DNA of 64,000 bases, from assembly GCA_021292165.1 (NCBI GenBank), contig CM037877.1, positions 113,359,289 through 113,423,288 of the forward strand, written 5' to 3'. The notes under the pieces are model-generated. The model saw only the letters and a program-made list of their open reading frames with translations, was not told where the DNA came from and did not search any database. The stretch comes from Shinisaurus crocodilurus. Taxonomy: Eukaryota > Chordata > Lepidosauria > Squamata > Shinisauridae. The translations under genes were made by a program, and so were the position numbers. This document shows, piece by piece, positions 11,860-56,350 of the stretch; the first letter of the stretch is position 1; each line of letters opens with the position of its first letter.

Positions 11860-12340
11860 AGTAGTCCAGCCTTGCTGCTTGCTGCTGCTGCTGCTGCCTG
11901 GGAGGGACCACCCGCACCACCGGTGGGACTGCTGGCTGCCCTTGCAGGACCGGGCCCAGCCAGGAGCCGCCCCACCCCACCTGCAACTGTGGGGCCATAA
12001 AGATCCGGCCCCAGCGGGGGCGGGTCACCGCCGCCGGGGTCGCCACCGAAGGGGCGACACCAAAGGGGGCCGCCTCTTTGGGGGAGCCACTTCGGGGGTG
12101 GCACGAGGGTGAGGGCCTGCCCCCCTGCTGAGGGGGATATAGGTGGGGCTGGGGTTTTTAAGAGGCCCTTCTTTTTGAAGGGCTTGGGGTTGATTTTAGG
12201 GGTGGGTCTCCCGCCTGATCGGCGGAAGCGAGGGGGCATGTGCCTCTCCCAGGGAGATGATGGAGGGAGTTCTGGGGGGCAAAATATACCACTGTTGAGC
12301 GGCAGGCAGCTGGCAGAACGCTAGGGGCAGGCCACGCCGA
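11860..12340 (+). other. GC-rich 5' region of the L2-like LINE
   Basis: Directly upstream of the long LINE frame the base composition jumps to strongly GC-rich and CpG-rich: CTG repeats at 11879-11897, then blocks such as 'cgggtcaccgccgccgggg' and 'ggcggaagcgagggggc'. This fits the 5' untranslated or promoter region of a full-length LINE. No convincing ORF1 protein is visible, and the left boundary of the element is not sharp. A host CpG island that the element landed beside is the alternative. Confidence 0.5.
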
Positions 12341-15277
12341 CTAAGGGGGACAAGGGATCGATGCTTAATACCTATCCCTTGTCCCGGGCCTGCCCAGAGC
12401 CAAGGGATAACTGGGGGATGTGTGGCTCCTCCCCCTGCCTTGCGTTTGCTGTTGTGCAATGCCAGGTCCGTTACCCAGAAAACATCTCTCATCCATGACT
12501 TGATCCTGGATGAGGGTGCGGACCTGGCATGTATTACGGAAACCTGGCTGGACGAGGCCGCTGCTCCAACTCTGGCGGCCTTGTGTCCGGCTGGTTTCTC
12601 GTATGCCCAGCAGCCAAGGGTTGGGGGACGGGGAGGGGGAGTGGCTGTTATCTATCGGGAGTCCTTGGTCCTTACCAGACTCCCTCTCCGGGAGACCAAG
12701 TTGATTGAGTGCATGTACTGGAGGTTGGGTCCCAAGGGCAGTCTGGGGATTCTGCTTGTGTACCGTCCACCCCGCTGCATGACAGACTCCCTGGCCGAGG
12801 TGCTGGAGGTGGTCTCTGGTGTGCGTGTGTTGTCCCCCAGGCTATTGGTGCTGGGGGACTTCAATGTGCATTCGGGGGCTGCCCTCACGGGGGCACCTCG
12901 GGACTTCATGGAGACCATGGCTTCCTGGGAGCTGCACCCTGTATTAACTGGATCTACCCATGTAGCCAGTCATGCACTGGACTTGGTTTTTGTTTCTGGA
13001 GAGGGGGGAAATGATCTGGAAATCGGGGGTATATCCACCACCCCCTTGTCATGGTCAGAACACTATCTGGTGGGGTTGGATTTCTTGATGCCACAACCCC
13101 TCTGCAGGGGTGAGGAACCTATTAGGATGGTCCGCCCCAGGCGTCTTATGGATCCGGATGGATTCCTGAACGCGCTTGGGGAATTGGAGCACACAAACGG
13201 TAGCTCGGTCGAGACCCTGGTGAACGACTGGAATGCTGCAATCACCAGGGCATTAGACCGAGTTGCCCCGAAGCGCCCTCTTCGCCTAAACAGAGCTCGC
13301 GCGGCGCCATGGTTCACTCCGTCGCTGCGAGCTCTGAAACAAGAGGTGAGAAGGCTAGAGCGCTGATGGCGTAATTCCCGCTCCGAAGAACACGGGTTAG
13401 AGCTGCATCTTCAGCCTACAGGGGTGGCAGTGAAGGCAGCAAAAAAGAATTTCTATGCTGCCTCCATTGCATCTGCGGAGTGCTGCCCCAGGAGGCTGTT
13501 CCAAGTGGTCCGGACTCTGGTCGGTCCAGTCGCTCCACTGGAACAGTCTAAAGCCTCCTGTGAGGCTTTAGCGAAGCACTTCGCAGATAAAATCGATCGG
13601 ATTAGGAGTGGGATATTGTGCGTCGTGGACACAGGGAGTGAGCGGGAGGAGGCCAATGGCAGACTGGTTTTGTGGGATCGGTTTCGGCTTCTTCCTTCTG
13701 ATGAAGTGGACAAGGTGCTTTCATCTGTGAGGCTGACCACCTGCTTGCTTGATCCTTGCCCGTCCTGGCTCATAATGAGCTGCAGGGAGAGACTGGGTGA
13801 GGGGATCAAGGCAGTGGTGAATGCCTCCCTCGAAGAGGCAGTGATGCCATCAGCCCTCAAGGAGGCAGTAATAAGACCGCTTCTAAAGATGCCCTCCTTG
13901 GATCCCCAGGATTTAAACAACTTTTGCCCAGTCTCCAATTTACCATTTCTGGGCAAGGTGATCGAGCGGGTGGTGGGTGCTCAGTTGAAGGCACACTTGG
14001 ATGAAGCCGATTATTTAGATCCGTGCCAGTCGGGCTTCAGGTCTGGACATGGGACGGAGACGGCCTTGGTCGCCTTGGTGGATGATATGAGGAGGGCTTT
14101 GGATAGGGGCGAATGCTCCTTTCTAGTCCTCCTCGATCTCTCAGCAGCTTTTGATACCGTTGACCACGGTATCCTCCTGGACCGCCTGGAGGGCTTGGGC
14201 TTGGGAGGCACTGTATTGCAGTGGTTCCGGTCCTTCCTCTCTGGAAGGTACCAGAGGGTAGTTCTCGGGGAGGAGGCTTCGGACTCTCGGCCGCTCACTT
14301 GTGGAGTGCCGCAGGGTTCCATCCTCTCCCCGATGTTATTCAACATCTACCTCAAGCCGCTGGGAGCTATCATCAGGAGGTTTGGGGTGCGGTGTCATCA
14401 GTATGCGGATGACATGCAGCTCTACCTCTGTTTCAAGTCCTCACCGAGGTTGGCCGTTGAGACCCCGTCCAAGTGCCTGGAGGCAGTGGCTGGCTGGATG
14501 GGAAGGAACATGCTGAAACTGAACCCCGACAAGACCGAGGTACTTCTGGTGGGGGACAAGGGGAGGTTAGGGGATGTTGACCTGGTGCTGAATGGGGTAC
14601 ATCTCCCCGTGAAGGACCAGGTCCGCAGCTTGGGGGTCATTCTAGACTCCCAGCTGTCCATGAAGGCTCAGGTGGCAGCTATGAGCCGGGCGGCGCTGTA
14701 TCAACTCCATCTGATACGGCAGTTGCGCCCCTACCTTCCTAATCACCTGCTCCCATCAGTGGTTCATGCTTTGGTCTCCTCTCGCCTAGACTACTGTAAT
14801 GCGCTCTACGTGGGGTTACCCTTGAAGACGGTTCGGAAGCTACAGCTGGTACAGAACGCGGCGGCTCGCCTGGTTAAAGGCAGCCGCCGGCGGGATCACA
14901 TCACGCCAGTGCTGAAGGATTTGCACTGGCTACCAGTTGCTTGCCGAGCCGAATTCAAGGTGTTGGTTTTGACCTTTAAAACCCTATACGGCTCCGGTCC
15001 AGTCTATCTCAAGGAGCGTCTCCAGCAACACCAATTGGGCCGCTCAACAAGATCTGCCACAGACGGCCTTCTCCTTGTCCCTTCAGCCAGAGCAGCTAGA
15101 CTGGTGGGGACGAGGAAGAGGGCCTTTTCTGTGGCGGCCCCCGTACTGTGGAACTCTCTCCCGAGTAACCTCCACCATGCCCCCTCTCTGCTGAGCTTCC
15201 GTCGCTCATTAAAAACCTGGTTATTCAGGTGGGAATATGGGGTGGGTCAAGATTTTAAAATTTTTATATTGTTTTAA
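12341..15277 (+). pseudogene. L2-like LINE ORF2 (endonuclease + reverse transcriptase), one nonsense codon
   Basis: About 978 codons in one frame, broken only by TGA at 13364-13366. The frame is already open upstream of the GTG at 12422, so the true start is probably upstream, in or before 12341-12421. Counting from 12422, an APE-type endonuclease shows N13 (LCNARS), E40 (TETW), YRPP, D146/N148 (GDFN) and an S-E-H triad at 212-214 where this domain normally has S-D-H. After the stop, counting from 13424, the reverse transcriptase shows LDLSAAFD (catalytic D238), GVPQGSILSP and YADD (327-330), then the conserved L2-type C-terminal region. It would nick DNA and prime reverse transcription of its own RNA. 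TGC at 13925 (NNFCPVSN) replaces an Arg seen in the copy at 50149-50532. Both the stop and this change look like CpG decay. L2 group is favoured; exact clade is inference. Confidence 0.9.
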
Positions 15278-45870: not shown

Positions 45871-46772
45871 CCCACATTTCCCCCCTGACCTTTCTCATTC
45901 AATTTGGTAGAAAAGAAATTGCTTTCAAAAATAAATTCAATGGTGAAGAGAATCTCAAAAAACAAAAACAGAAAAACACACATTCTCCTGGACTTGGTTT
46001 GGATTTCTTGTGCTTACGAGGTGGCTGAGGAGTGTGCGAAGGTATCCTGTTTTTTCATACCACACTTCCTCAGATGCGTTGTGGGCTGAGATGGCCCTGT
46101 ATGGAGGAAGAGGGCTCGCAGCCACCATGGGAAAGCAGTGACAAAGACTATTTAAAAACAAGAAAAAAGGGGGGAGTTTGAAAAGAAGGCAAAGCCTCTG
46201 GCTGCTACTATCTCTGACTGTTAAAAAAAGAAAAAGAAAAAGGGTATGTTAAGTCCCCCACCTCTGAAACTGTATCTAAAGTTTCCTTTAGACTGCCCCT
46301 TTTTGACTGCCCCCCTCATTCAGCACAGCCTTATTGGTAACCCTACTCCCAACATCCAATTGTGCAAAATAGTGGGTGAAGTCCAGTGACTAGGAATTTA
46401 TGGCCATAGAAATGCCCTTTGTGTGCTGCATGCAGCCTGGGAGGGGCTTGTGTATGCCTGTCATTATTGCCTGAAATCACTTTTGGGCAGAGTGTGAGCC
46501 AAGGGTAAATTCTAAGCATTTTTTTCCCAACTGCACAATAAGTGGGTGCAGCCCCCCCCTCCCCAATGTGTGAGTACCTCCCAAAAATTTCCTAATAGAA
46601 AAAAATAAATATGAAAGAGGGAAGAGTAAATGAGAAGGATTAGAGAAATGAAGAGAAAGGGAGACAGGAAGGAAGAAAGGAAGGATAGGAAAATGAAGAA
46701 GATGCCTTGCAAAGAATGGGTGAGATCGCCTTCCCTCCCTAAACTATAGTTGAGGACTGAGACTCCCTCCCC
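45871..46772. other. no recognised feature
   Basis: Nothing is recognised apart from purine-rich stretches (46615-46700). Confidence 0.4.
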
Positions 46773-47774
46773 CAGGGATGTTGAAGAGTCCTTGGCCTCG
46801 AGTCACGAGTCGAGTCACGAGTCTTTGGACCCGAGTCTCGAGTCGAGTCTCGAGTCCAAGGTCCAAAATGGTGACTCGAGTCCCGAGTCACTCCCAAAGC
46901 GGCGGCCCATGGAGGGAGCGGGAGGGTCTCAGCGAGAGGAACAAGAGCTGCCCTCCCTCCCGCGGAGACCCTCCCGCTCCTCCATGGGCCGCTGCCGCCC
47001 CCACTTACCATGGGCGGGTCCTTCCCTCGTCCCTGCTCTTGCCGCCGCCGCCGCCGCCGCACCAGGGATGCATTATGAGCCCTCCTGGGTTTGTAGTTCT
47101 CCGCGGCGGTGGCGGCGCAGCCCGATCTCGCTCTTCTGAGCGGTGCGGAGAGCGTTCTCCGTGCCGCTTGAGTCGCCGCTGCCACCTGCTGCCGCCTCGC
47201 CGCTGCCGCCTCGCCACCGCTCACGTCACCGCCATCACAGTTTCACCTCATCGCCACCCGCTCACAGCCACTGCCGCCGCCATCAAACGCCACATTGCCG
47301 CCATCACACGCCATGCCGCCCACGCCGGTCCCGTCATCACTTCCACCGCGGCGGAAGTGACGCGCCGGGACTCTGCTCCGGCGCGCTTGGCTGCCGCCAC
47401 TCAAAACAGAGCAGCGGTGGCCAAGCGCAGCAGAGCAGGGTCCCGGCGCATCACTTCCACCATGCCGGAAGTGATGACGGGACCGGTGCGGGCGGCGGCA
47501 TGCGATGGCGGCGGCGTGATGGCAGCTGTGTGCGATGGCGGCGGCTGCATGCGATGGCAGTGGTGGCTGCGTCCGGGTGGCGGCAAGGGAGACGGAGACG
47601 GCGGCGACGTGACCGGCAGCGGTGGCGGGCAACGGTGGTGGAGTCCTTGGGCTCGAGTCCCGAGTCGAGTCTCGAGTCCCATTGAAAAAATTGGGACTCG
47701 AGTGGGACTCGAGTCAGTGGGGGGACTCAGTCGGACGAGCGAGTCAAGTCGTCGAGTCCAAGTCCCCATCCCTG
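46773..47774. mobile_element. CpG-rich hAT-type foldback element, 1,002 bp, perfect 8-bp duplication
   Basis: Ends CAGGGATG and CATCCCTG are inverted copies, flanked by identical CCCTCCCC (46765-46772 and 47775-47782). Each end carries a cluster of GACTCGAGTC-type palindromes (left about 46797-46890, right about 47645-47765). Inside, two further inverted repeats stand out: 46899-46930 against 46963-46991 ('gcggcccatggagggagcg'), and a large one centred near 47405 with 'ggtcccgtcatcacttcc' (about 47323) and 'ggaagtgatgacgggacc' (about 47466), traceable over roughly 47160-47640. CpG is dense. Long open frames exist on both strands but translate to Arg/Pro/Ser/Ala-rich sequence without a domain. 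No transposase is present. Confidence 0.88.
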
Positions 47775-47782
47775 CCCTCCCC

Positions 47783-48867
47783 ACAAAACATATAATTGTG
47801 GGGCTGAGAGCCCTCTCCTCTGATTATAATTGTGGTGACTAGAATTTATCCTTTCACAAGATGGTTGGTTGTTGTCCTGCAAAATATGTTGAAGGTTTTG
47901 TATGGGATAATACTACTAGGGATGATAGGTTCTAAAGCTGTCACAGAGCAGAGGCTCCTCACAAAATGGCAGCTCAAAAACTGCGTAGCTGCGTAGCTAT
48001 CCTTAACCTGCAAATCTGTTGTAAGGACTTGGGAGCAATCGGTGCAACAGCAAGATCAGGTCCGGCTTTAACACAAAGAGAGGTAATTTTCATGTTACAT
48101 GGTAAAACATTTGGGAACAAATCCACCAGGAATTGGTGGAGAACCTTTTAGAAGCCAGGCACTTTACTAAAGGCGGGGGGTGGGAGGACGACTCTTGAGT
48201 TAGAAGACAGGGGGATTTCCTCTATTAGAGGAACAAAACACAGACATTACTGCAGAGTAACAAGAATCTTGTGTCTTATTAACAAAGCTCTCTGTAAATG
48301 CATATACATACATACATACATACATATGGCCTTAATTGTGTCTGGATGTCTTGTGCTCTTTGGCCAAACTCAGTCTGTAAGCCCTGGCAGCCTGCTGGGC
48401 TGAGCTGAGGCCTTGTCTCAGTCTGGGAGTCTCTCTGAGAGAATGTTGCCTCCTGAACAGCCTGTGCTGAATGGAACTTTCTGGAAGTCCAGTCATGCAA
48501 TATGAATGTTCTTCAAGGATTTTACAGTTCTTTGGAAGGGTGAAGGACTAATGCTGACAAACAGGAACCACAAGACCCCAAAGGGCCATGGGAATTGGAG
48601 TATGACACAATAGAAATGTGTGTCCTGTACTGTAGCTGCTGTTGTAATTGAGGGAAAATAGAAGCGTAGGAGTTGGAGGAAGGGGACAAGGAGCCTACAG
48701 AAAGTGCTGGAAGTAGAGTTCGCCTGTCCTGCGTTGGGCTGTCTGCTAAAAGGCACTAGAGAGAACTCTGTTACCCAGGCTGCATTTTACTGAAAGGCTG
48801 AGAAGGAAGAAGTCATTTCAAGGGCTGCTGAGGAGAACTGTAGCTGCAGGAGTACAGTTTGCTTTGC
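47783..48867. other. no recognised feature; (CATA)n at 48301-48326
   Basis: Unique-looking sequence; no gene or element is recognised. Confidence 0.4.
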
Positions 48868-48944: not shown

Positions 48945-50590
48945 TCTATACCAGCCAATAGCTGAAGCTCTCTGGGAGGTTTACAACAATCAATAAAAAT
49001 TACAATAAAATACATTGTAAAATATACAGAATAAAAACAAATTTAAAAATGACTCAAATAACTAAAACAAGTTAGTTCAACGCGACTTGTAAAAAAGTTA
49101 AAATAACCACCCCACTATGCACTATTTAGAGTTGTTAGAAGCCTCAGTGTAGAGGGCAGTCTTAACCTGGTGCCGAAAAGATAGTAGAGTTGGTGCCAGG
49201 CAGGCCTCAGGGGGGAGCTTGTTCCACAGTTGGGGGGCTACCACAGAAAAGGCCCTCCCCCTTGTTGCCACCCTCCGAACCTCCCTTGTTGAGCATAGTG
49301 TCTGGGTAGATTGTGGTTGGGAGCGGCATTCCGTAAAGTATTGTGGCCCCAAGCCATGTAGGGCTTTATTGGTCAAGACCAGCACCTTGAATTGGGCTCA
49401 GAAGCATACAGGCAGCCAGTGCAAGTGGGCCAGAACTGGTGTTATCTGTTCGGACTTTCTAGTCTCAGTGATTAGTCTGGCTGCTGCATTTTGCACAAGC
49501 TGCAGCTTCTGAACAGTCTTCAAGGGCAGCCCCATGTAGAGTCCATTGCAGTAGTCTAGTTTAGAGATCACCAGAGCATAGATTACTGAGACCAGGCTAT
49601 CCCTGTCCAGATAGGGTCATAGCTGGGCCACCAGCTGGAGCTGGTAGAAGGCACTCCATGCCACTGAGGCCACCTGAGCCTCAGGTGACAAAGATGGCTC
49701 AAGGAGAACCCCCAAGCTACGAACTGGCTCCTTCAAGGGGAGTGCAACCCCATCCAGAACAGGTTGAACACCCTCCATCTGGTCAGAGGAACCACCCATT
49801 AACAGCATCTCAGTCTTGTCTGGATTGAGCTGCAGTTCATTAGCCCTCATCCAGTCCATTGTCACAGTCCGGTTTAGCATATCCACAGCCTCACCTGCTG
49901 CAGATGAAAAGGAAAAATAGAGCTGCGTGTCATCAGCGTATTGATGGCAACACACTCCAAAACTCCAGATGATCCCACTCAGTGGTTTCATGTAGATGTT
50001 GAATAGCATGGGGGATAAGACCAACCCCTGTGGAACTCCATACTGGAGAGTCCATGGGGCCAAGCAATATTCCCCAAGAACCACCTTCTGGAGCCGGCCA
50101 TCCAAGTAGGAGAGGAACCACTGCAATGCAGTACCCCCTGCTCTCAACTCAGACAGCCACTCCAGAAGGATTCCATTGTCCGTGGTATTGAAAGCCGTCA
50201 AGAGATCCAGGAGTATCAACAGGGTCACACTCCCCGCCCCTTCTCCCGGTATAGGTCATCATACAGGGTGACCAAAGCTGTTTCCATGCCAAAACCAGGC
50301 CTGAACCCTGACTGAAATGGATCCAAATAATCATTCTCATCCAAGACAAGAGCACCTGGAGTTGGTTGGCCACCACCCTCTCAAGGACCTTGCCCAGGAA
50401 AGGAACATTCGCTACCGGCCTAAAGTTATTAAGATCTTCTGGGTCCAGGGAGGGTTTCTTCAGGAGTGGCTTCACCACTGCTTCTTTCAAGCGGCATGGG
50501 ACCACTCCCTCTCGCAAAGAGGCATTGATCACCTCTCTGACCTAGCTAGAGTGGAGCCCAGCCTTCACTAAAGCACTTTGCCTTTGAAAA
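48945..50590 (-). pseudogene. L2-like LINE, 5' truncated, decayed reverse transcriptase
   Basis: Minus-strand frames give, in order: 50532-50149 'INASLREGVVPCRLKEAVV' and 'LNNFRPVANVPFLGKVLERV'; 50228-49617 with motif A as 'LDLLTAFNTTDN' (the second Asp is lost), 'YGVPQGLVLSPMLFNIYMKP' and intact 'YADDTQLYF'; then 49385-49122 with 'KALHGLGPQYF' and 'RAFSVVAPQLWNKLP'. Stops and frameshifts separate them. No endonuclease part is present. The 3' end lies at the (TAA)n tail near 48944. It is older and of a different subfamily from 12341-15277, with a longer 3' region. Confidence 0.88.
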
Positions 50591-54519: not shown

Positions 54520-56350
54520 AAGTGGGACTGATGCCATGGCTAAGGGAAGTAATTACCGTAATGCCTCTTTGTGGGAGGGGGTTGTTCCCTCTTCCTTAAA
54601 AGAGGAAGCAATAAGACTTGTAGTTAAAGAAAACTTCCCTTGACCCAGAAGATTTGTCTAACTATAGGCCAGTCTCAAATGTACTATTCTTCGCTAAGGT
54701 GATTGAGAAGATGGTGGTGTTACAACTCCAGGTGCAACTGGATGAAACTGACTATCTGGACCCATTTCAATTGGCCTTTTGGCCAGCACTGAGACTACTT
54801 TGTTGACTTGGTGGATGACCTACACCAGGATCTGGATGGGGGTAGTGCAACCCTATTACAGTAATACCTTGGATTGCAAGCATAATTCGTTCCGGAACCG
54901 TGCTTGTAATCCAAAACACTCTTATATCAAAGCGAGTCTCTGGCGGGCGTGAGCGGGGCCGATTTCAGGCCCACTACGCCTGCTCGAGGCGAGTTACATC
55001 CCTACGACTTGTCTTGCAAGACCTTGCTTGTTTATCACGTCAAAAACATTTTGCTTGTCTTGCAAAACGCTCTCAGACCAAGTTACTTGCAATCCAAGGT
55101 ATTACTGTAGTTCACTTGGATCTCTCAGTGGCTTTTGATGCCATTGACCATTGTATCCTTCTGGATTGCCTGGCAGGGCGGACCTGGGCATGCTGTTTTG
55201 CAGTGGTTCTGGCCCCTTCTGTCGGGCCGTGTTCAGAAGGTGGTGCTGGGGGATTACTGTTTGACTCCACAGCCATTGGCTATGGTGCCCCACAGGGTTC
55301 TATCCTGTCCCCATGTCATTTAATATTGATATGAAACTGCTGGGAGAGGTCATTTGGAGCTTTGAGTAAGGTGTCACCAACATGCTGGTGACACCAGGCT
55401 CTATTGCTTTTTCTCACCTAACACCAAGGAAGCAGCTGAAACCCTTGGACCCTTCCTGGGTTCGATAATGGGCCAGGTGAGGGTGAACAAGCTGAGCCTA
55501 AGCCCAGACAAGATGGAGGCGTTATTGGTCAGTAGAAAGTCTGACTCAGGGATTGGGATTCAGGCTGTTCTGGAAGGGCTTGCACTGCCCCTGAAGGATC
55601 AGGTTCATAGGTTGGGAGTGCTCCTTGATGCTACACTGTCCCTGGATCTTCCAGTGGTGGCAGCAGCAAGAAGTGTATTTGCATAAGTGCAAACTACGAC
55701 CGTTCCTGAGTTGGCCTGAGTTGACCACAGTTAGCTATGCCTTGGCTACACATCACATTTAGATTATTGCAATGCACTTTACATGGGGCTACCCCTGAAG
55801 AGTGTCCGGAAGTTTCAATTGGTGCAAAGTCTGGCAGCTAGGCAGCTAACTGGTGCATGGTATTAGGATCATATTACATCAGCAAGACCTTCACTGCTTT
55901 CCGGGCTCAATTCAAGGTGTTGGTCTTAACTTTTAAAGCCCTGAATGGCTTAGGACCTGGCTATCTAAGGGACTGCCTGTCTCACTATGAACCTTTCCAA
56001 ATATTGAAATCTGCTGGAGAGGCCCTTTTGAGGGCACCATTAACTGTGGAGGACCATTTGTTGGGCACACATGATGAAAGGGCTTTTTCCTATGTTGCCT
56101 CCAAATTATGGAAAGTGTTCCCTCAAGAACTACAATTGGACCTCACTCCTTTGGCCTTTAGAAAGGATGTAAAGATGCATCTTTTCAATTTAGCCTTTTT
56201 AAAATATGCAGGTTTTATCGTGTTAATGTTCTTACTGTTCTTGCTTTATTGTTGCAGGTTTGATCATAGTGTAGGTTTTGTTTGCCTTTTTTCATTTGTA
56301 TACTGCCTTGGGTAATATGGGATGGAAGAGAACACCACATAAAAATAAAT
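54520..56350 (+). pseudogene. L2-like LINE, decayed, split by a Tigger-like MITE
   Basis: Fragments in order: 'SLDPEDLSNYRPVSNVLFF'-like (about 54635-54690), 'DETDYLDPFQLAF' (54740), then after the MITE 'LDLSVAFDAIDHCILLD' (55115, motif A intact), 'GAPQGSILSP' (55280), 'LSLSPDKMEALLVSRKSD' (55495), 'GLALPLKDQVHRLGVLLDAT' (55577) and 'FKVLVLTFKALNGLGPGYL' (55910). The YADD block near 55385 is not readable. It ends 'actgccttgggtaatatgg' and AAAATAAATAAG near 56350. The subfamily matches the fragment at 4027. Confidence 0.85.
54859..55107. mobile_element. pogo/Tigger-like MITE, second copy
   Basis: 249 bp with ends CAGTAATACCTTGGATTG and CAATCCAAGGTATTACTG and TA on both sides (54857-54858, 55108-55109). 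It lies in the opposite orientation to the copy at 22519 and splits the L2 reverse transcriptase just before motif A. Confidence 0.92.

What the first reader, a model, noticed from the sequence alone, without database searches (positions are those of the whole stretch)
46773..47774. 1-kb CpG-rich hAT-type foldback element with GACTCGAGTC arrays
Exact 8-bp duplication CCCTCCCC, CAGGGATG/CATCCCTG ends, dense GACTCGAGTC-type palindromes at both ends, and nested inverted repeats inside. The subterminal arrays look like transposase-binding sites. The element amounts to a mobile CpG island of about 1 kb in a CpG-poor region, able to seed promoters or boundaries where it lands. I know of no named family for it.
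Basis: partly seen in the sequence, partly recalled or inferred. Interest (0 to 1): 0.75.

Follow-up and report, generated by a model that had tools for sequence, protein, structure and literature searches.

The report
Non-autonomous hAT transposon, CpG-rich palindromic core
This 1-kb stretch is a real cut-and-paste transposon of the hAT kind that carries no gene of its own, has hundreds of similar copies in the same animal genome and tens of thousands of relatives with the same ends; its CpG-rich middle appears to decay like ordinary methylated DNA rather than act as a protected CpG island.

Summary
Window 46773-47774 is a complete non-autonomous hAT-type element: exact 8-bp duplication, CAGGGATG/CATCCCTG ends, CGAGTC arrays at both ends, two long palindromes between them. 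Other copies share the termini with different 8-bp flanks (43 of 52 distinct insertions exact, 6 at 7/8). A dispersed repeat elsewhere shows the empty site with one CCCTCCCC (39 of 40 scored matches span the junction). The left end has 42,630 matches in the 2.19-Gb genome, reversed control 0; a CpG-core motif has 682. None of 19 copies sampled on one chromosome has the CpG core. Such copies can carry, between the same ends, the C-terminal dimerisation region of a hAT transposase (PF05699, 39.2 bits; Hermes, E 2.4e-5). No intact partner was found. The 'mobile CpG island' reading is weakened: CpG transitions in the core run 9.4 times above other C/G sites (bootstrap 7.1-13.2), as expected for methylated DNA. 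It is a new member of a known kind; whether Repbase or Dfam names it could not be checked.

The parts
46765..46772 (.). left copy of 8-bp target-site duplication CCCTCCCC
   Evidence: empty site with a single copy at C1:230448740-230448960 (L095)
47775..47782 (.). right copy of target-site duplication CCCTCCCC
46773..47774 (+). complete non-autonomous hAT-type element, 1002 bp; no Pfam family over its cut-off in the two open frames scanned (of 13 listed)
46773..46780 (+). left terminal inverted repeat CAGGGATG
   Evidence: shared by other copies
47767..47774 (-). right terminal inverted repeat CATCCCTG
46786..46889 (+). left subterminal CGAGTC array (inferred transposase-binding sites)
   Evidence: left ends of the two lineage consensuses 90.5% identical
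47641..47759 (+). right subterminal CGAGTC array (inferred transposase-binding sites)
   Evidence: right ends of the two lineage consensuses 93.3% identical
46899..46995 (.). palindrome 1 of the core
47297..47512 (.). palindrome 2 of the core as still recognisable in this copy (consensus 432-862, arms about 215 bp); holds ETS-like sites
46901..47640 (.). CpG-rich core (GC 0.705, CpG o/e 0.97); the consensus core matches none of the 19 main-lineage copies

Best explanation
The element is a non-autonomous DNA transposon of the hAT superfamily. Shown: it inserted at a single CCCTCCCC in an older dispersed repeat and duplicated those 8 bp; hundreds of matches to its CpG core and tens of thousands of matches to its left end exist in this genome; sister copies carry the C-terminal dimerisation region of a hAT transposase between the same ends. 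Inferred: a hAT transposase supplied in trans recognises the CAGGGATG termini and the CGAGTC arrays and moves any DNA lying between them by cut and paste. The CpG-rich palindromic core is then a passenger; its high CpG content reflects a CpG-rich founder and fairly recent spread (non-CpG divergence from consensus about 1.5% in the sampled copies), and copies are losing CpGs in the way of methylated DNA.
For: Ends, arrays and duplication. 52 distinct insertions among the held loci: 43 exact 8-bp duplications, 6 at 7/8, 2 exact if the boundary is moved 1 bp by eye, 1 at 4/8; offset control never above 6/8 in 583 comparisons. Empty site: 39 of 40 scored matches (of 113 candidates) to the joined flanks run through the junction, one aligned base by base. 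Numbers: 42,630 left-end matches, control 0; 32,970 array-motif matches, control 32; 682 core-motif matches, control 0. hAT relic: PF05699 39.2 bits, cut-off 21.4; Hermes chain 6dww_A E 2.4e-5; 150 of 150 scored loci, the best of 14,424 candidates, encode it with 100% identity; 4 of the 150 were fetched and 4 of 4 lie between the same ends (L089-L092). Only the ends are shared between CpG-core and main lineages (90.5% and 93.3%); consensus core against 19 main copies: no match. CpG change 9.4-fold.
Against: No intact autonomous element was found. The one transposase seen between these ends (L069) belongs to a different, nested hAT element. The peptide used for the relic was merged by hand from two decayed copies before one search found it verbatim. 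Binding of the arrays is untested.
Confidence: 0.94

Rival explanations
1. Mobile CpG island: the core stays unmethylated where it lands and seeds promoters or boundaries.
For: CpG o/e 0.98 here, 1.00 to 1.14 in the other CpG-core copies measured, 1.17 in the consensus of 28 copies. The consensus core holds 4 SCGGAAGTGA (ETS-like), 2 TGACGT(G/C)A and 5 GATGGCGGC against means of 0.00, 0.01 and 0.05 in 300 dinucleotide shuffles; the palindrome repeats most of these in its other arm, and the motif names are recalled.
Against: In the alignable core CpG transitions are 8.4% against 0.9% at other C/G sites, 9.4-fold (bootstrap 7.1-13.2); the end arrays of the same copies give 5.6-fold (3.6-9.2). 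With the GCC-repeat tracts left in, the core gives 5.7-fold. A protected island should show little excess. The sample is the 28 copies closest to the window copy, and the test speaks for the germline only.
Confidence: 0.08
2. Pack-type capture: the core is a host CpG-island promoter and first exon picked up by the transposon, read on the minus strand.
For: The minus strand reads CCATGGTAAGT, a start codon followed by a donor-like site, in 19 of 28 copies; ETS-, CRE- and YY1-like sites lie upstream of it.
Against: A sister subfamily copy (L094) has both palindromes but no CCATGGTAAGT, no core motif and no counterpart of consensus 294-435. No source locus without the ends was seen: 59 half-palindrome matches with another continuation, one of 59 fetched, and that one was an element again. 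The ZNF143-like spacing that I had in mind (recalled) is not met.
Confidence: 0.12
3. Not a transposon: a GC-rich tandem or palindromic local expansion with chance flanks.
For: The core is rich in GCC-type simple repeats.
Against: Dispersed copies with the same ends, different 8-bp duplications and an empty site.
Confidence: 0.01

Closest known systems
hAT superfamily, Hermes-type transposase C-terminal dimerisation region (PF05699)
   Same: 8-bp duplication, CAGRG-type termini (recalled), subterminal repeats, and a sister-copy peptide that aligns without gaps to positions 445-507 of the Hermes chain 6dww_A
   Different: This copy has no transposase; catalytic core and DNA-binding domain of its partner were not found
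Tgf2/Tol2 hAT elements of fish
   Same: Many short subterminal repeats at both ends; in Tgf2 17 and 18 copies, with the N-terminal zinc finger implicated in binding terminal and subterminal repeats (PMC4890040, passages seen)
   Different: Repeat motif here is CGAGTC; no autonomous copy in hand; no comparison of transposase sequences with Tgf2 or Tol2 was made
hAT MITE families such as Mar of Drosophila
   Same: Non-autonomous, conserved ends and duplications, transposase relics in related copies (PMC3517528, abstract and outline seen)
   Different: About 1 kb, with a CpG-rich double-palindrome core unrelated to the interior of the sampled main lineage; not shown to be an internal deletion of an autonomous element

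Membership tests
hAT superfamily | 8-bp target-site duplication | tested here: met
   43 of 52 exact, 6 at 7/8; empty site
hAT superfamily | short terminal inverted repeats of the CAGRG type (recalled) | tested here: met
   CAGGGATG/CATCCCTG, 8 bp
hAT superfamily | subterminal repeats at both ends | tested here: met
   10 and 7 CGAGTC; binding itself not testable
hAT superfamily | hAT transposase with the same termini | tested here: inconclusive
   relic dimerisation region between the same ends in sister copies; no intact gene found (each of limited reach)
MITE / non-autonomous derivative | no transposase, high copy number, conserved ends | tested here: met
   no Pfam family over cut-off in the two frames scanned
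MITE / non-autonomous derivative | origin by internal deletion of an autonomous element | tested here: inconclusive
   main-lineage copies share interiors and some hold the transposase relic; the CpG core matches none of 19 main copies
Foldback element | long terminal inverted repeats | tested here: not met
   terminal inverted repeat 8 bp; long palindromes are internal; arrays mostly direct
CpG island | length, GC and CpG o/e thresholds (recalled) | tested here: met
   1002 bp, GC 0.67, o/e 0.98
CpG island | protection from CpG decay in the germline | tested here: not met
   9.4-fold excess of CpG transitions; indirect, sample of 28 copies closest to the window copy
CpG island | transcription start or boundary activity | not testable with these tools
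   no chromatin or expression data
Pack-type gene-capturing transposon | host source locus outside the ends | tested here: inconclusive

The most novel reading that the evidence does not exclude
A hAT lineage took up a CpG-rich palindromic module with paired ETS-, CRE- and YY1-like sites and spread it to about 700 places or more, so that a housekeeping-type promoter switch was dispersed through a vertebrate genome; some copies act as promoters before methylation silences them.
Probability: 0.12. Interest if true: 0.6.

Novelty: new member of a known kind. Interest (0 to 1): 0.36.

Why it matters
A very abundant non-autonomous hAT family with shared ends and interchangeable interiors gives a clean set for testing which end sequences a hAT transposase needs. 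The CpG-rich subfamily offers hundreds of similar CpG-dense inserts in many contexts, a natural experiment on whether CpG density alone protects DNA from methylation; the decay pattern in the sampled copies suggests that it does not.

Tried and rejected
L069 as the autonomous partner: its transposase lies in a second hAT element with CAGGGCCGG-type ends and its own 8-bp duplication GGAACACG, nested in a copy of our family; rejected. The nesting was read by eye.

Autonomous partner by pattern: one search gave 769 hits, 100 listed; 99 of the 100 continue with AA as in the deletion copies L076 and L086, one with AC; not followed. (97 hits) rested on my wrong idea that the relic was an N-terminal piece fused to the C-terminus; one search shows the peptide running without gap along Hermes, so one search tests little. 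One search moved the test upstream: 75 hits, by eye mostly indel variants, a few odd contexts not followed. One search (PF14372) gave nothing, and its controls were silent too, so it says nothing.

Captured exon with a ZNF143 site: motif spacing not met, stretch absent in L094. 87-aa protein P0001: source 'ena' only, no context. NCBIfam gave no family for the relic peptide. Rfam and tRNA scans of the window gave nothing.

Text searches for a named family: listings only, nothing fitting among the rows shown (20, 11, 6, 3, 12, 12).

Full report
What is there. The window lies at G000:C2:113359289-113423288 of a 2.19-Gb assembly of an unnamed animal. The element occupies 46773-47774: CCCTCCCC on both sides, ends CAGGGATG/CATCCCTG, CGAGTC arrays in the outer 128 and 134 bp, and a 740-bp core of GC 0.705. 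CpG observed/expected is 0.98 inside and 0.25 in the other 62,998 bases. GACTCGAGTC with up to 1 mismatch occurs 12 times in the window, all in the element; 0.53 expected. The sites point mostly the same way at both ends, so the arrays are largely direct repeats of each other; one search lists the matching direct families.

Palindromes. In the majority sequence of 28 copies (996 bp) the core consists of one palindrome at 134-231 (91.8% self-complementary) and one at 432-862 (91.0%), with about 200 bases between them. In the window copy the same structures are worn: 46899-46995 (81.6%) and 47297-47512 (78.9%). The larger one still folds far better than shuffles (z -15.5).

It moved. Searching the genome with the element scored 40 of 5884 candidates; 30 loci were taken (L009-L038, L009 being the window itself), and 29 of 30 show both ends, L035 not. 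Nineteen further regions chosen from the array hits on C1 between 0.58 and 3.2 Mb (L070-L088) all show both ends; 17 of 19 have an exact 8-bp duplication and 2 have 7 of 8. Over every held locus except L064 the script lists 53 rows after dropping rows with an identical 30-base flank; L092 was split wrongly into two rows and is one insertion with GGTGTTGC on both sides, so 52 insertions: 43 exact, 6 at 7/8, L010 and L036 exact if a boundary is shifted one base (my reading), L037 4/8. L070 and L073 look like one duplicated insertion. Comparing 8-mers 9 or more bases away from the ends never gave more than 6/8 in 583 trials.

Empty site. The joined flanks with one CCCTCCCC match a dispersed repeat: 40 of 113 candidates scored, 39 run through the junction at 83-92% identity, the remaining one is the window's own right flank. 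One of them, fetched, reads ACTCCCTCCCCACAAAA without an insert.

Family size and lineages. The left-end 23-mer has 42,630 matches with up to 2 mismatches, reversed control 0. In the C1 sample 12 of 19 copies hold two such matches, because the left-end sequence recurs just inside the right array, 1.63 per copy on average; if that sample is typical, there are about 26,000 copies (inference). The core motif has 682 matches, control 0; it is seen in 27 of 29 CpG-core copies with both ends and in 0 of 19 C1 copies, so 682 is a slight undercount of that subfamily. The C1 copies have interiors related to one another (GC 0.46-0.54) and unrelated to the core, while the left and right ends of the two consensuses agree at 90.5% and 93.3%. 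The C1 copies come from one 2.6-Mb stretch of one chromosome. One copy picked from the core-motif list (L093) is 1026 bp with TATAATCC on both sides. L094 is a sister subfamily, 884 bp (AGAAAAGG/AGAAAAGC), with both palindromes and a longer loop, without the CCATGGTAAGT stretch and without a counterpart of consensus 294-435.

Link to hAT. Main-lineage copies encode on the minus strand a peptide that hits Pfam PF05699 (residues 30-98, E 6.1e-10, 39.2 bits, cut-off 21.4) and aligns to positions 445-507 of a Hermes transposase chain (E 2.4e-5). I merged the peptide by hand from two decayed copies; it was then found with 100% identity at 150 of 150 scored loci. These are the best of 14,424 candidates, so the identity is selected, but 150 perfect copies still point to recent spread. 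Four of these loci were fetched (L089-L092) and all four lie between the same ends. An intact partner was not found.

CpG decay. Twenty-eight copies (window plus L010-L038 without L028, which shares its flanks with L026, and without L035) were aligned. L011 and L014 share flanks and were both kept. The sample is the set closest to the window copy, not random. Over all sites CpG transitions are 8.5%, other C/G transitions 1.4%. Split by region with nothing left out, the ratio is 10.5 in the left end, 5.7 in the core and 4.1 in the right end. Leaving out GCC-repeat tracts, where alignment is uncertain, the core gives 8.4% against 0.89%, ratio 9.4 (bootstrap over copies 7.1-13.2), and the two ends together 5.6 (3.6-9.2); total non-CpG divergence in that core is 1.5%. 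The ends differ less from consensus than the core at CpG and A/T sites and slightly at other C/G sites, which I cannot fully explain; selection on the ends of transposing copies is one reading. For the 19 main-lineage copies the ratio was 3.7 and 7.5 in the ends but 1.9 over the whole gapped alignment, an alignment of deletion variants that I do not lean on. The core therefore loses CpGs as methylated vertebrate DNA does (established knowledge). This bears on the germline only and is indirect.

Motifs. The consensus core has 4 SCGGAAGTGA, 5 GATGGCGGC and 2 TGACGT(G/C)A sites, against means of 0.00, 0.05 and 0.01 in 300 shuffles (0, 0 and 1 of 300 reach the observed number); the window copy keeps 2, 4 and 1. 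Because the core is palindromic, most sites have a partner in the other arm and are not independent. Names of factors are recalled. SP1-, NRF1- and TATA-type motifs are not enriched.

Verdict. The element is a passenger-carrying member of a large non-autonomous hAT family. I know of no name for it, and the rows listed by six searches of the held papers gave none, but the repeat databases were not at hand.

Noticed in passing
L069:2608-7322: A second hAT element with CAGGGCCGG-type ends and its own duplication GGAACACG is nested in a copy of our family (outer duplication GGTAGTGC); it holds transposase pieces of 381 and 487 aa. The 487-aa piece hits PF05699 over cut-off; PF14291 matches in both pieces are below cut-off.
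   Followed up: partly
window 12299-15277: LINE-type retrotransposon with endonuclease (PF03372) and reverse transcriptase (PF00078) frames; explains the GC-rich stretch at 12-15 kb.
   Followed up: partly
window 49617-50255 (-) and 54846-56315 (+): Further frames that read like reverse transcriptase, apparently decayed LINE pieces (by eye).
   Followed up: no
L071, L072, L076, L078, L079, L081-L086, L088: The left-end sequence CAGGGATGTTGA(A/C)GAGTCCTTGG recurs just inside the right array in 12 of 19 sampled copies, as if one end had been duplicated.
   Followed up: partly
window 46680-46772 and 47783-47885: The element sits inside an older dispersed repeat with at least 39 other copies.
   Followed up: partly
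P0001: An 87-aa protein from a 678-base ENA contig is identical to the transposase relic over 86% of the query; its organism is not shown.
   Followed up: no
G000:C2:187855915, C2:209353927, C12:8659945: Odd sequence contexts upstream of the relic, possibly longer transposase copies; letters for them could not be had.
   Followed up: no
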